Positions 38,215 through 43,943 of a stretch of DNA of 64,000 nucleotides are shown here, in pieces. Within the stretch, counting starts at the first letter, position 1. Each line of letters begins with the position of its first letter. The translations under genes were made by a program, and so were the position numbers. This DNA comes from Cytophagales bacterium (GTDB lineage Bacteria > Bacteroidota > Bacteroidia > Cytophagales > Thermoflexibacteraceae): contig JAAFKA010000005.1 of NCBI GenBank assembly GCA_013299115.1, positions 1-64,000 on the forward strand, read 5' to 3'. The notes beneath the pieces are model-generated. The model ran no database searches, was not told the origin of the DNA, and saw nothing but the letters and a program-made list of their open reading frames with translations.

Positions 38215-38341
38215 TTTTACAGCTAAAATTTGCTTACTAATAATTTTTTTTCGTTTTTGCACTTTTACATTTTAAATCCTCGCAACCTAAGTGAAACATA
38301 ATGGCACAATTTTAGGTATAACTAAGCAAACCTTATTGATT

Positions 38342-41300
38342 ATGAAAATGCGTTTTCCAATAGCTTCATTTTCCTTGTTCGTGTTTGTTTTTGTTTTGTT
38401 TTTCTCAACTACCAAAGCACAACAAGTCATTTCGATTGATATAAAAATCAACAACGGTGGCAAAATCACCAATGACCCCGAAGGCAAAGTTACCTTAACT
38501 GCTTTTGCGATGGGGGCAGTACAGATGCAAATTAGCAATGAAAGCAACTTTGCCAATGCAAGGTGGGTAAGCTACGAAACTCGTCTGCCTTGGAAACTAA
38601 GCACAGGCGACGGGCTAAAAACCGTCTATGCGAAGTTTAAAGACAGAAATGGCGAAATTTCTACGGCAGAGGCTCAAATAGAGTTAGACCGTGAGCCGCC
38701 AACCAATACCAGCATTAGTATTAATTCGGGTATGACTTATACCAACGATAAAAACCGTATGGTGTCTTTGGAGTTTACAGCTGACGACGCAACGCAAATG
38801 CAACTAAGCCACCGCGACGACTTTGCTGGAGCAAATTGGATGCCTGTGATTAAACAACGTAAATATCAACTCTTAGGCGAAGATGGAGTAAAAACTCTCT
38901 TTGTGCGTTTTAGAGATGAAGCAAACAATATTTCGCAACCTGTGTCTGCTTCCATAGTCTTAGACCGAAAAGCCCCAACCAATACCAAAGTTGTAATTAA
39001 CAATGGTGATAAATTCTCAAAATCCAACGAAGTTACATTAAGTTTGTATGCAGAAGGGGCTACTTCTCTCTTTATCAGAGGAGATTCTGATTGGTTGCCC
39101 TACCAAACCTCGATGAAATACAGCCTATTGCCCCCTGGCGATGGCGAAAGAACAGTACAGGTCATGTTTAAAGACTCGGTTGGCAATCAATCGAAAGTAG
39201 TTGTAGATGCCATCGTGGTAGATAGTGAAGCCCCACAAGCCCCAAAAATTTCTATCAATAGTGGAAATAAAAACACCAAAGATGAGGCTGTTCGGTTGCG
39301 TTTGTCTGCTGTAGGTGCAAATTTTATGATGATAAGCAACACCGAAGACTTTAATGGTGCGGTTTGGGTAGGCTACAACATAGAGATGCCCGCATGGAAT
39401 TTACTACCCAACGAAGGCGAAAAAACTGTTTTTGTCAAATTTAAAGACCTAATTGGAAACGAATCGGAAGTAACCCATGCCAAAATCAAATTAGATAAAA
39501 CGCCACCTTCCAGCCCAAAAGTTAAGATTTTGGGAGATAAAAATACAGTAAAAAACAAAGTAGATTTGGAAATTTCTGCCGAAGGTGCAAAATATATGAT
39601 GTTGAGCAACGAAAGTAATTTTTACTCTGCTCGTTGGGAAATTTACAAAACCGAATACAAAGAATGGGAGTTGGGCGGCGTAGAAGATGGCAAAAAAGGT
39701 GTGTTTGCTAAGTTTAGAGATGAGGCGGGCAATGTATCTGCCGTTGGCAGTGATTTTATCCGTTTAGATAAAACACCACCACAAGACGGCAAACTCATGA
39801 TAGACATGAACAAAGAATATTGTACCGACAAAGAGGGTAAAGTTACGCTTAATATTTTTGCAAGAGGTGCTTCCAAGATGAGGGTAAGTAACAATAGTGA
39901 TTTTGCGGGTAAAGACTCAGCTTATAGTATTCCTTATAACACTTCGCATAATTGGCAATTAGAAGGCGAAGATGGACTGAAAAGTGTAGCCATTCAGTTT
40001 ATAGACGAGGCTGGTAGCCCTTCTGAAAAAGTAGTGGACAATATCATTTTAGACCGAAATCCTCCCTTCGACACCGAAGTAGTGATGAACAAAGGCGACA
40101 GCGTTACTAACGACCCCGATGGAATTGTTTTGTTAAAAGTAAGAGCAAAAGAAGCTGTTTTGATGCGTATAGCCAATACGGAGGATTTTCAGGGTGAGCA
40201 GTGGCAAAAATATGATGAAAAAAATAGAGGTTGGAAATTATCGAGTGGAGTAGATGGCAAACGCAAAGTCTATGTGAAATTTAAAGACATAGCGGGCAAT
40301 GAATCAAAAACCTTGTCAAACGAAATTTTCTTAGACCGTACACCACCCAAACAAGGTTTTGTGAAAATTATGTCTGAAAATCAGGCACAAGCCAAGACCC
40401 AAAACGTGAAACTCGACCTCAAAGCCGAAGGTGCAATAGAGATGATGGTTTCTAATGATTTTGCTTTTCGCGGGGCAAAATGGGAAGTGTATCAAGCCGA
40501 AAAAGAATGGGCTTTGACTACACAAGACGGTGTGAAAATGGTTTTTGTGAAGTTTAAAGACAAAGTAGGCAATATTTCTGCCGTAGCTTACGACAAAATA
40601 GGTTTGGATACGCAAGCACCAAAAAATGGCAAAGTGCAAATCAATGGCGGTGCTAAATTCTGTACACAGGTGGGCAAGTTAGTAACACTCAAACTTTCTG
40701 CCAACGAAGCTACACAAATGATGATAGCCAACGACCAGCAATTTACTGAGGCTAAATGGCAAAAATTCGAACCCTACTTGTATAACTGGCGTTTGGAGGG
40801 CGAAGATGGCGAAAAAGCTGTATTTGTGAAGTTTAAAGACAATGCGGGCAACGAAACAGAACCTGTAACAGCCTCTGTAATGTTAGACAGACAAGAACCT
40901 GTTGGTGAGGAAGTCTTAATCAACAATGGAGATGTGTGTACCAACAACCCAAACAACAGAGTAAAATTAACTTTGCGTGCAGATGGGGCAACAGAAATGG
41001 CGTTTAGTTCTAACACTTACTTCAACAACGCCAAATGGGAGCCTTACAAAGATGCAAAAGACTATATTTTGATTGGCGGTAGAGATGGACAAAAAACAGT
41101 CTATGTCAAGTTCAGAGATGAGGCGGGCAATGAATCGGGAACAGCCAAAGCCTCTATCATGCACGACACCGAAGCTCCTTATTCGGGCATTTTGAAAATA
41201 AACAACGGCAAAACCTTAACCAATGAAACCAGCGTAAGATTAGGTTTCAACGCCAAAGGTGCGGAGTTTATGGCAGTTGCCAATAGTGAAAACTTCGATG

Positions 41301-41443
41301 GCGTGGTTTGGGAGCCTTACAGCCCTAATAAACCTTGGTCATTGACCGAAGGACCTGGTTTGAAAACCGTTTTTGTGAAGTTTAAAGATAGTTGTGGCAA
41401 TATTTCTGCCCCGATTAGGCAAACTATCACTTTGGCTTATTAA
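38342..41443 (+). CDS. Secreted protein of 11 tandem Ig-like repeats
   Basis: 1033 residues from the ATG at 38342; a GTG at 38291 would put 17 residues before the signal peptide. After the signal peptide (FFSTTKAQQ) the protein is almost only 11 repeats of about 92 residues. Each has the pattern xVxLxxxAxGAxxMxISNxxxF and xxWxxY, then DGxKxVFVKFKDxxGNxS and a closing LDRxPP linker, like fibronectin- or Ig-like surface repeats. There is no clear T9SS C-terminal signal: it ends within the last repeat (ISAPIRQTITLAY). Probably periplasmic or exported, perhaps structural or adhesive. The repeats differ enough at DNA level to be old. Confidence 0.82.
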   Translation: MKMRFPIASFSLFVFVFVLFFSTTKAQQVISIDIKINNGGKITNDPEGKVTLTAFAMGAVQMQISNESNFANARWVSYETRLPWKLSTGDGLKTVYAKFKDRNGEISTAEAQIELDREPPTNTSISINSGMTYTNDKNRMVSLEFTADDATQMQLSHRDDFAGANWMPVIKQRKYQLLGEDGVKTLFVRFRDEANNISQPVSASIVLDRKAPTNTKVVINNGDKFSKSNEVTLSLYAEGATSLFIRGDSDWLPYQTSMKYSLLPPGDGERTVQVMFKDSVGNQSKVVVDAIVVDSEAPQAPKISINSGNKNTKDEAVRLRLSAVGANFMMISNTEDFNGAVWVGYNIEMPAWNLLPNEGEKTVFVKFKDLIGNESEVTHAKIKLDKTPPSSPKVKILGDKNTVKNKVDLEISAEGAKYMMLSNESNFYSARWEIYKTEYKEWELGGVEDGKKGVFAKFRDEAGNVSAVGSDFIRLDKTPPQDGKLMIDMNKEYCTDKEGKVTLNIFARGASKMRVSNNSDFAGKDSAYSIPYNTSHNWQLEGEDGLKSVAIQFIDEAGSPSEKVVDNIILDRNPPFDTEVVMNKGDSVTNDPDGIVLLKVRAKEAVLMRIANTEDFQGEQWQKYDEKNRGWKLSSGVDGKRKVYVKFKDIAGNESKTLSNEIFLDRTPPKQGFVKIMSENQAQAKTQNVKLDLKAEGAIEMMVSNDFAFRGAKWEVYQAEKEWALTTQDGVKMVFVKFKDKVGNISAVAYDKIGLDTQAPKNGKVQINGGAKFCTQVGKLVTLKLSANEATQMMIANDQQFTEAKWQKFEPYLYNWRLEGEDGEKAVFVKFKDNAGNETEPVTASVMLDRQEPVGEEVLINNGDVCTNNPNNRVKLTLRADGATEMAFSSNTYFNNAKWEPYKDAKDYILIGGRDGQKTVYVKFRDEAGNESGTAKASIMHDTEAPYSGILKINNGKTLTNETSVRLGFNAKGAEFMAVANSENFDGVVWEPYSPNKPWSLTEGPGLKTVFVKFKDSCGNISAPIRQTITLAY

Positions 41444-41564: not shown

Positions 41565-42587
41565 CTACAAAAAATCTGCTTTGATTTTTTCCATAATTTT
41601 ATCCATAAAAGGATTTCCCAACTTGTAACTATCTTGCAGCCTTGTCTTGATGTCTTGTTTTTGTAACTTTCCTAATTCATTGATAACCTTTTCGGCAAAA
41701 GGAAACATAAATTTTTCAACAGTTTTGTGTCCATTGAGATAAAAAAATGTTTCATTTTTGGATATTAGTCCCATTAATTTTGTTTCTACTTCATTAATTT
41801 CTTGTGCAAATATTTCGGCTGTGTACCAATCATTTTTTTCTAAAAACTTTGCTTTTATCAATTCCACCCATTTCTCAATCTTGTCTTTCAAAGTTGTTTT
41901 AATTTGAACTTCTATGTTTAAAATATCAATTTCCTCAATAGGCAATAAAAGGCAAGTTAAGGAGTTTTTAATTTTGTCATCTTCGCCAAAATTCCAGCCA
42001 AGTTCTTTCCATGTCGAATATCTATGTCTTTCATTTACATCAGAATATAGCTCTGGATTACTTTGACTATGCACCCAATAAACTAAAAACGGAAATACAG
42101 TTTCAGAATAAATATTGACGATTTTTTCAAAATCAAAATCTTTAAAAGTCAGTTCATTGCAAATTGCTTGCAAATTTTTTGGATAGGCAGCATGTGCCTC
42201 TCTGTCGTATGTATAAGTATGATAAATATATGATTTTGTCAAATAAGCTGCATCTTTATGCCCATAGAGCAGCCAATTATCAGTATCTCTACAAATTATT
42301 AGTTTTTCATTCACTTCATCTTTAAACTTCATTGCATAATCTTTGCCTTCTGGTTTTGTAATTGTTGTGTTTAGTTCAAAGTTTGCAGTAGCCACACAAC
42401 AAGGTTTTAAAGTTGGAACAGCAGTCGTAATAATATGTTTCCAAAAAATAAAATCCTCGTAATCATTTTCCAAAATTAGCCCAACATTATATTTGTTTGA
42501 ATTTATTGTCAGTCTTCCCAAAAGGCTCTGCACATCATTTTTCCAAGCTATTGACTTTTTTTCGTCTTTTGTTTGCTTTTTGTTCAT
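41565..42587 (-). CDS. DUF4435 (TOPRIM-like) protein, PARIS AriB-like
   Basis: 340 residues without a signal peptide. The N-terminal part has TOPRIM-like features: LILENDYEDFIFW (about 35-47) at the position of the usual Glu motif, and IICRDTDNWLL (about 93-103) as the DxD motif. The rest is helical, with an aromatic-rich centre. DUF4435 proteins are the effector (AriB) of PARIS anti-phage systems, where the partner ATPase (AriA) releases them on sensing a phage protein and they then cut tRNA. Here the gene starts six bases after the ATPase gene ends, so the two are co-transcribed. Function as an effector is inferred from family and pairing. Confidence 0.75.
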   Translation of the reverse strand: MNKKQTKDEKKSIAWKNDVQSLLGRLTINSNKYNVGLILENDYEDFIFWKHIITTAVPTLKPCCVATANFELNTTITKPEGKDYAMKFKDEVNEKLIICRDTDNWLLYGHKDAAYLTKSYIYHTYTYDREAHAAYPKNLQAICNELTFKDFDFEKIVNIYSETVFPFLVYWVHSQSNPELYSDVNERHRYSTWKELGWNFGEDDKIKNSLTCLLLPIEEIDILNIEVQIKTTLKDKIEKWVELIKAKFLEKNDWYTAEIFAQEINEVETKLMGLISKNETFFYLNGHKTVEKFMFPFAEKVINELGKLQKQDIKTRLQDSYKLGNPFMDKIMEKIKADFL

Positions 42588-42593
42588 AAATCC

Positions 42594-43943
42594 TTATCGT
42601 TTAAATTTTAGTTTATTTTCATACAAAGGATTGGTAGCCACACTAAAATATTTGCGAAGTTCCTCTACTTCCTCTACTTCTTTTGTAGTACGTGCCTTAC
42701 CTAGTAAAGTAGAGAAAGTGATAATATCAGGTCGTATGTCTTCAGTGGGCAATTCATTTTTTACTATTTGCATACCTTCTATAATATTATCAACCTTTTT
42801 AATGATTGCATTGTAGGTTACAATAGTCGGCTTAATTTCATTTGATTTCATTGTAGTTAGAAGTTGCCTTGCACCCTCCAACGTACTAACTTTAATGATT
42901 AAAGTTGTATAGGTGTAAGTATCAGCCTCTAAGTTCTTCTTTTTTATTATTTCTAATATTTTATTTGCACCATGCAAAGACATATTGACAATACTTTCAT
43001 TAAGTAGCCGATTAAATTCATATTTAGTGGTAACATTTTGAAACAACGTCAAAAGTGCTTCATTGGTATCATTATTTAATTCTATATTGACTTCATCTAC
43101 ACTAATATCGTACATACCTTGTTTGCGGTTTTGCCAGCCTTGCATATATAAATTAGGCGAATGTGTAACCGCAATAATTTGGCAATTTGGATTGAGTTCT
43201 CGCATCATTTTCACAATCGTTGCCTGCCATTCTACGTGCAGAGAAATTTCGGGTTCGTCAAGCAATAAAACAGAAGGTTTGTTGTGTTGCAAGAGGCAAG
43301 TAAGCAAAAGAAAAAAAGCCTGTTTTTCGCCTGATGATAAGTTTTTGGGCAATATTGGTTCTGTTTTTCCTTCTTTGATAAAAACAAATTCGTCAGGAGA
43401 AAAAGATTTTCCTGTTTCTGAAAAAAGTTGGTCTATAAATTTTTTAAATAAATTAAATTTTCCAAAAATTCTTTCTCTCAGTTCCCTTATTGTGGTAGTT
43501 GTATGTTGATGTTCAAGATTTGAAGATAAAATAGTAGCAAGAACTTCGTTTGCTTCACTTGCTTGCGAATTTTTAAACTTAAAATAATCTCTTGGTAACT
43601 CTTTATCCAATTTATCTGTCAATCCTTTTTCACCAAAAAACGAATCTATCTTTTTTATATTAGCACCTTGCAAAGACTTAAAACCAATTAATTTTCGACC
43701 TTCGGAGTCAAAAAATATGTATCTGCCATCGTCTAATTGTACCAGTAATTCATTAATAAAATTGAATTTATCGAAATCAATATCTTCTTCATTTTCTTTA
43801 AATAATTCCTCTACAATGTTGAGTAAGGTAGTTTTGCCATAACCATTATCGCCAACCAAAAAATTAACATCTTGAAAGAGTTGCCATTCTATATCAGAGT
43901 CTGATATAGAAAAATGTTTGATTTTTATATTTTGAATAAACAT
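42594..43943 (-). CDS. AAA/ABC-type ATPase with C-terminal PPR-like repeats, PARIS AriA-like
   Basis: 449 residues from the ATG at 43943; in-frame ATG at 43958 and TTG at 43970 are alternatives. Walker A VGDNGYGKTTLL (about 27-38), signature LSSGEKQ (about 198), Walker B SVLLLDEPEISLH (about 218-230) and the switch VTHSPN (about 259) define an SMC/OLD-like ATPase. From about residue 305 the protein changes to helical pairs of 32-33 residues resembling pentatricopeptide repeats: TYTYTTLIIKV...NEIKP, then TIVTYNAIIKKV...EDIRP, then DIITFSTLLGKA. PPR units bind RNA base by base in organelles and are rare in bacteria. With the DUF4435 gene downstream the pair looks like a PARIS-type defence module with an RNA-sensing tail; this last part is inference. 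Confidence 0.8.
   Translation of the reverse strand: MFIQNIKIKHFSISDSDIEWQLFQDVNFLVGDNGYGKTTLLNIVEELFKENEEDIDFDKFNFINELLVQLDDGRYIFFDSEGRKLIGFKSLQGANIKKIDSFFGEKGLTDKLDKELPRDYFKFKNSQASEANEVLATILSSNLEHQHTTTTIRELRERIFGKFNLFKKFIDQLFSETGKSFSPDEFVFIKEGKTEPILPKNLSSGEKQAFFLLLTCLLQHNKPSVLLLDEPEISLHVEWQATIVKMMRELNPNCQIIAVTHSPNLYMQGWQNRKQGMYDISVDEVNIELNNDTNEALLTLFQNVTTKYEFNRLLNESIVNMSLHGANKILEIIKKKNLEADTYTYTTLIIKVSTLEGARQLLTTMKSNEIKPTIVTYNAIIKKVDNIIEGMQIVKNELPTEDIRPDIITFSTLLGKARTTKEVEEVEELRKYFSVATNPLYENKLKFKR

What the first reader, a model, noticed from the sequence alone, without database searches (positions are those of the whole stretch)
42594..43010. PPR-like repeats fused to a bacterial defence-type ATPase
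Residues from about 305 hold helical pairs with the PPR pattern (TYTTLI...KP, VTYNAII...RP, ITFSTLL). PPR proteins are largely eukaryotic organelle RNA binders. If true, this ATPase may sense a specific RNA, or present tRNA to the DUF4435 effector. I know of no such described fusion.
Basis: partly seen in the sequence, partly recalled or inferred. Interest (0 to 1): 0.85.

Follow-up and report, generated by a model that had tools for sequence, protein, structure and literature searches.

The report
PARIS-like defence ATPase with PPR tail
A bacterial anti-phage-type ATPase, paired with a tRNA-nuclease-like partner, really does carry four tandem pentatricopeptide repeats (modules best known from RNA-binding proteins of plant organelles), whose base-reading residues are frozen across relatives, suggesting that a bacterial immune system uses a protein 'RNA-reading code'.

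Summary
The minus-strand ATPase (42594-43943) is a PARIS AriA-type ABC/AAA_21 ATPase. Its C-terminal 140 residues match PPR models (PPR_3 E 1e-15; no TPR match) and designed PPR proteins in the PDB. AlphaFold gives four helix pairs plus a cap at pLDDT 86-96. Three of the four repeats are 32-33 residues, not 35: about three residues are missing between helices A and B.

The next gene (41565-42587) is AriB-like (DUF4435) with the E/DxD triad intact. Ten distinct fusions are known from one order, three of them in this genome; eight have an AriB-like neighbour. PPR-less siblings of the same ATPase, also paired with DUF4435, stop where the repeats begin.

In nine aligned fusions, six of the eight 'fifth and last' base-reading residues are invariant (P about 1e-4), reading roughly U-(A)-U-A, with K/R at position 10 of repeats 1-3. 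Other bacterial short-PPR arrays in the phylum, several beside NACHT NTPases, diversify preferentially at those residues (combined P about 1e-3).

Best reading: a PARIS variant whose PPR module binds single-stranded RNA and gates or feeds the nuclease. RNA binding is inferred, not shown. The fusion was not found in the literature searched; PPR repeats in a bacterial immune STAND (Avs5) were.

The parts
42594..43943 (-). AriA-like ABC/AAA_21 ATPase with C-terminal PPR module (449 aa)
   Evidence: PADLOC AriA 2.1e-43; Foldseek best hits AriA 8v47, 8v45
43827..43853 (-). Walker A, residues 31-39 (GDNGYGKTT)
   Evidence: sequence; G31, N33, G34, G36, K37 invariant in A3
43320..43340 (-). ABC signature LSSGEKQ, residues 202-208
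   Evidence: near-invariant in A3
43251..43268 (-). Walker B LLLDEP, residues 226-231
42921..43025 (-). PPR repeat R0, residues 307-341 (35 aa), code residues N311/D341
   Evidence: AF2 helix pair 307-317/323-335; N311 and D341 invariant in 9 fusions
42825..42920 (-). PPR repeat R1, residues 342-373 (32 aa), code residues T346/T373
   Evidence: Pfam PPR_3; AF2; T/N in most relatives
42726..42824 (-). PPR repeat R2, residues 374-406 (33 aa), code residues N378/D406, K383
   Evidence: Pfam PPR_2/PPR_3; AF2; invariant
42630..42725 (-). PPR repeat R3, residues 407-438 (32 aa), code residues S411/N438, K416; IITFSTLLGKA block
   Evidence: AF2; invariant
42600..42629 (-). C-terminal capping helix, residues 439-448
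   Evidence: AF2
41565..42587 (-). AriB-like DUF4435 protein (340 aa), starting 6 nt after the ATPase stop codon
   Evidence: PADLOC AriB 8.7e-20; Pfam DUF4435 6.4e-5, below its gathering score
42468..42470 (-). E40, candidate Toprim catalytic glutamate
   Evidence: invariant in 12 relatives
42279..42287 (-). D101-x-D103, candidate Toprim DxD
   Evidence: both D invariant in 12 relatives

Best explanation
The two genes form a PARIS-like abortive-infection system. The ATPase (AriA type) holds an AriB-type Toprim nuclease in check and releases it on infection. In this variant the ATPase carries a four-repeat short PPR module that binds a short single-stranded RNA stretch read by the 'fifth and last' residues as roughly 5'-U-(A)-U-A-3'. 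Binding, or loss of it, is coupled to the ATPase and so either signals infection or brings the nuclease's RNA substrate. Shown by computation: ATPase and PPR identity, helix-pair array, AriB-like partner by profile, recurrence, invariance of code residues. Inferred: defence function, RNA binding, the read-out and the coupling.
For: AriA/AriB profiles; AriA as closest solved fold. AriB-like gene next to 8 of 10 distinct fusions, and 11 of 12 DUF4435 relatives match AriB. PPR-less siblings of the same ATPase, also paired with DUF4435, end where the repeats begin, so the module is an add-on. In nine fusions (relatives 28-38% identical to the window protein) 6 of 8 code residues are invariant (hypergeometric P 1e-4; 8e-4 among N/D/S/T sites), and position 10 of R1-R3 is always K/R, plausibly matching position 13 of 35-aa repeats, which contributes to RNA binding (PMC11094755). 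In other bacterial 32-33-aa PPR arrays, otherwise near-identical units vary preferentially at the same two positions, mostly using the code alphabet (fifth N/S/T, last N/D), combined P 9e-4. One such PPR protein also has an S1 RNA-binding domain. E. coli AriB is a tRNA-cleaving Toprim nuclease released by AriA (PMC12409363).
Against: Four repeats is short for independent RNA binding. N5 and D35 are also consensus PPR residues, so invariance may be partly structural. R1 is variable and its T/T pair in the window is not a standard code word. The E. coli AriA senses proteins, not RNA. The AlphaFold model of the AriB-like partner was poor and matched no Toprim, and a profile search of the PDB found no AriB. 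DUF4435 in Pfam is below its gathering score for the window protein. One lineage with the PPR module lacks the DUF4435 neighbour and has degenerate ATPase motifs (L023/L090, L201).
Confidence: 0.55

Rival explanations
1. The PPR repeats are a protein-binding sensor or docking surface: they bind a phage trigger protein or the AriB-like partner, and RNA plays no part.
For: E. coli AriA is triggered by phage proteins such as Ocr, Ptr1 and Ptr2 (PMC12409363). [quoted passage not shown] Four repeats is few for RNA.
Against: The invariant residues coincide with the base-reading positions and position-10 lysines. A sensor of phage proteins would be expected to vary rather than be frozen, and the AriB-like partners are very divergent (19-26% identity).
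Confidence: 0.3
2. [quoted passage not shown] coli AriB. (A special case of the best explanation.)
For: The read-out is U-(variable, mostly A)-U-A. In this genome U-N-U-A lies at anticodon positions 34-37 of Lys(UUU), Thr(UGU) and Arg(UCU). E. coli AriB mainly cleaves Lys(UUU) and Thr(UGU). A fixed read-out suits a fixed host ligand.
Against: The match was noticed after the fact. U-N-U-A is common in anticodon loops because U33 and A37 are conserved (also Tyr). The favoured R1 reading, A, fits neither Lys nor Thr. E. coli AriB cleaves these tRNAs without a PPR module.
Confidence: 0.15
3. The PPR tail only promotes oligomerisation or stability and has no ligand.
For: PPR-less siblings paired with DUF4435 exist, so the core can do without it.
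Against: The strong, selective conservation of polar residues at ligand positions is more than stacking needs.
Confidence: 0.1

Closest known systems
PARIS (AriA-AriB) of E. coli B185
   Same: AAA_15/21-type ABC ATPase next to a DUF4435 protein; AriA is the best PADLOC match and best PDB fold match; E and DxD residues present in the partner
   Different: ATPase core is only about 290 aa and carries a 140-residue PPR module; AriB similarity is remote; PPR was not found in the passages of the PARIS papers read
PPR-less short ATPase + DUF4435 pairs in the same family (L080-L084) and small plasmids
   Same: Same ATPase core and partner, same gene order
   Different: They end at about residue 290, without PPR
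Avs5 (AVAST type 5), PaAvs5-3 with PPR repeats (PMC12931631)
   Same: Bacterial immune NTPase with C-terminal PPR-type repeats in the sensing domain
   Different: A STAND-family system, not ABC ATPase plus DUF4435; repeats discussed as protein ligand binders, no RNA code analysis in the passages read
P-class PPR proteins and designed PPRs (PPR10, dPPR)
   Same: Helix-pair repeats, fifth/last code residues, xPD[VI]TYxxLI pattern; strong sequence matches
   Different: 32-33 aa unit with about three residues lost between helices A and B; only four repeats; bacterial, fused to an ATPase

Membership tests
Pentatricopeptide repeat (PPR) | Significant match to PPR profiles rather than TPR | tested here: met
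   PPR_3 1.3e-15, PPR_2 2.2e-14, PPR_1 3.5e-8; no TPR model at E<=10
Pentatricopeptide repeat (PPR) | Tandem helix-turn-helix pairs stacking into a solenoid | tested here: met
   Four helix pairs plus cap, pLDDT mostly 86-96; superhelix geometry itself not measured
Pentatricopeptide repeat (PPR) | 35-residue unit (31-36 in S and L types) | tested here: met
   R0 35, R1 32, R2 33, R3 32 residues; within the known range but not the P-class 35
Pentatricopeptide repeat (PPR) | Code residues at fifth and last positions | tested here: met
   N/D, T/T, N/D, S/N; 6 of 8 positions invariant; R1 of the window is non-standard
Pentatricopeptide repeat (PPR) | Sequence-specific single-stranded RNA binding | not testable with these tools
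   needs binding assay
PARIS (AriA-AriB) | AriA-type ATPase with Walker A, signature and Walker B | tested here: met
   PADLOC AriA 2.1e-43, motifs, AriA folds
PARIS (AriA-AriB) | Adjacent DUF4435 / AriB gene | tested here: met
   PADLOC AriB 8.7e-20; Pfam DUF4435 23.3 bits, below the 27-bit gathering cut-off also used by the original PARIS search
PARIS (AriA-AriB) | Toprim nuclease fold and catalytic residues in the partner | tested here: inconclusive
   E40, D101, D103 invariant but the model had no PDB match
PARIS (AriA-AriB) | Phage-triggered defence by tRNA cleavage | not testable with these tools
   experiment

The most novel reading that the evidence does not exclude
Some Bacteroidota use a short (32-33 aa) PPR as a reprogrammable RNA-reading sensor across several immune NTPase classes. 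Long arrays beside NACHT NTPases or other domains re-tune their code residues, while the PARIS-type fusion keeps a fixed U-(A)-U-A read-out for a conserved host RNA, possibly an anticodon loop that its AriB-like nuclease then cleaves.
Probability: 0.3. Interest if true: 0.92.

Novelty: new variant of a known kind. Interest (0 to 1): 0.75.

Why it matters
PPR has been described as an exclusively eukaryotic motif absent from bacteria (PMC4029402). Here it is a recurrent part of bacterial immune-type NTPases, with signs that the same two-residue RNA code is in use. If true, bacteria possess protein-coded, reprogrammable RNA recognition in immunity, the trigger of a PARIS variant becomes predictable from sequence, and compact 32-33-residue PPR units become available for RNA-binding design.

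Tried and rejected
TPR or another helical repeat instead of PPR: rejected. Contamination by eukaryotic DNA: rejected for the window (three copies in this genome, ten distinct fusions in the order counting L016/L018 once, bacterial neighbours). The one strong plasmid hit, a Rahnella plasmid with a 35-aa-unit PPR protein, was set aside as probably plant DNA. Phage origin: the phage collection held no match to a bacterial PPR array, and in the viral-contig scan with the whole fusion all 66 matches ended at or before residue 314, that is in or just after the ATPase. One genome-contig scan found one further locus, with the same sequence as one already seen. Toprim fold of the partner by AlphaFold and Foldseek: model too poor; PDB profile search gave nothing useful. 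Direct similarity of the PPR module to the DUF4435 profile: none. A class III cyclase reading of the N-terminal domain of the L073 PPR protein: by eye only, not supported by Pfam. Conserved housekeeping linkage to the flanking rlmB-like methyltransferase gene: not seen in three relatives.

Full report
Observation. The minus-strand ORF 42594-43943 encodes 449 aa. Residues 26-265 are an AAA_21/ABC-type ATPase with intact Walker A, LSSGEKQ signature and Walker B. The rest matches PPR models above gathering score and no TPR model. Sequence searches of the PDB return designed PPR proteins and maize PPR10 for the tail and AriA for the ATPase. AlphaFold2 with nine sequences predicts four helix pairs and a cap, pLDDT mostly 86-96. 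The model's best structural matches are AriA chains of the PARIS complex.

Partner and system. The downstream gene 41565-42587 starts 6 nt after the ATPase stop and matches AriB (PADLOC 8.7e-20). Pfam DUF4435 is sub-threshold. Across 12 relatives E40, D101 and D103 are invariant, as expected of a Toprim nuclease (inference from established knowledge of the fold), and 11 of 12 match AriB models. The AlphaFold model of the partner was not good enough to confirm the fold.

Recurrence. The genome holds two more ATPase-PPR/DUF4435 pairs (L002, L003) and a PPR-less pair (L080). The same fusion occurs in other genomes of the order (L018 = L016, L019-L023; L201 from G594). In the sampled searches with the repeat profile, full-length module matches came only from that order (391 genomes; 396 genomes across the phylum). 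The loci have different neighbours, and in three relatives the gene flanking the window pair, an rlmB-like methyltransferase, stands without an ATPase-DUF4435 pair, so the pair behaves as a movable cassette (inference). Two related fusions (L023/L090 and L201) lack the DUF4435 neighbour and have altered ATPase motifs.

Do the repeats read RNA? The field defines base recognition by the fifth and last residue of each motif, also for motifs that are not 35 aa (PMC13041630). In nine aligned fusions these residues are N/D (R0), T or G or M / N or T (R1), N/D (R2), S/N (R3). Six of eight positions are invariant while the region has 20 invariant columns of 139 (hypergeometric P 1e-4; 8e-4 if only N/D/S/T sites are compared), and position 10 is K or R in each of R1-R3 in all nine. 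By the published code (PMC11094755) this reads U-(A)-U-A. Caveat: N5 and D35 are also the PPR consensus, so some of this may be structural.

Independent evidence comes from other bacterial short-PPR proteins met on the way. In L073 (11 near-identical 96-nt units), L072, L079, L202 and L205, I asked whether positions 5 and last vary more than other positions (P 0.005, 0.01, 0.33, 0.35, 0.06; combined 9e-4; the signal is carried by L073 and L072). The residues used are mostly N/S/T at the fifth and N/D at the last position. L073 reads C-G-U-C-A-C-U-G-A-C-G. Several of these PPR genes lie next to a NACHT-like NTPase gene (L075, L078, L202, L204, L205; some NACHT matches are below the gathering score), and one carries an S1 RNA-binding domain (L202). 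PPR remains rare: 4 of 297 sampled genomes of the phylum and 0 of 14 controls.

Mechanism. Most likely a PARIS-type system in which an RNA-binding PPR tail has been grafted onto the ATPase (confidence 0.55). [quoted passage not shown] coli (PMC12409363). A tempting but post hoc match: U-N-U-A occurs at anticodon positions 34-37 of Lys(UUU), Thr(UGU) and Arg(UCU) in this genome; I give tRNA presentation 0.15, because such a motif is common in anticodon loops and R1 favours A. The main rival is protein-ligand sensing (0.3), as in E. coli AriA and as suggested for Avs5. These confidences overlap, because tRNA presentation is one form of RNA binding.

Novelty. No paper found describes an ATPase-PPR-DUF4435 architecture (the library is open-access only). 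PPR in a bacterial immune STAND is mentioned for Avs5 (PMC12931631). I therefore rate it a new variant of a known kind, with an unproven but testable claim that bacteria use the PPR RNA code in immunity. The phylum (Bacteroidota) is inferred from the title of a close relative's record.

Noticed in passing
L073:877-3150: 758-aa protein with at least 11 near-identical 32-aa PPR units whose fifth/last residues use all four code words and read CGUCACUGACG, a perfect inverted repeat around the central C. N-terminal domain unassigned (cyclase-like by eye only).
   Followed up: partly
L078 (this genome, C46), L075, L202, L204, L205: Recurrent two-gene arrangement: NACHT-like NTPase followed by a short-PPR array protein; in L202 the PPR protein ends in an S1-type RNA-binding domain.
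   Followed up: partly
L079:6819-9697 (this genome, C67), also L076, L077: AAA-like gene followed by a PPR protein with an unassigned N-terminal domain of about 200 aa; apparently conserved as a pair, and the same C-terminal tail style is seen in L075 and L203.
   Followed up: partly
L072:7234-9087: 618-aa PPR protein with six near-identical units reading A-A-G-G-U-U; N-terminal domain without a Pfam match.
   Followed up: partly
L090 and L201: ATPase-PPR fusions that have lost the DUF4435 neighbour and show altered Walker B and signature, yet keep invariant PPR code residues; possibly a separate function.
   Followed up: no
window 38291-41443: 1050-aa secreted-type protein made of about ten repeated units beside the ATPase/DUF4435 pair; unrelated to the finding.
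   Followed up: no
CP036489.1 37717-39927 (L158): Rahnella plasmid record with a plant-type 35-aa-unit PPR gene, probably plant contamination in a public record.
   Followed up: partly
L086:5019-5682: Transposase-like fragments just upstream of the ATPase-PPR/DUF4435 pair on C26, in keeping with mobility of these cassettes.
   Followed up: no
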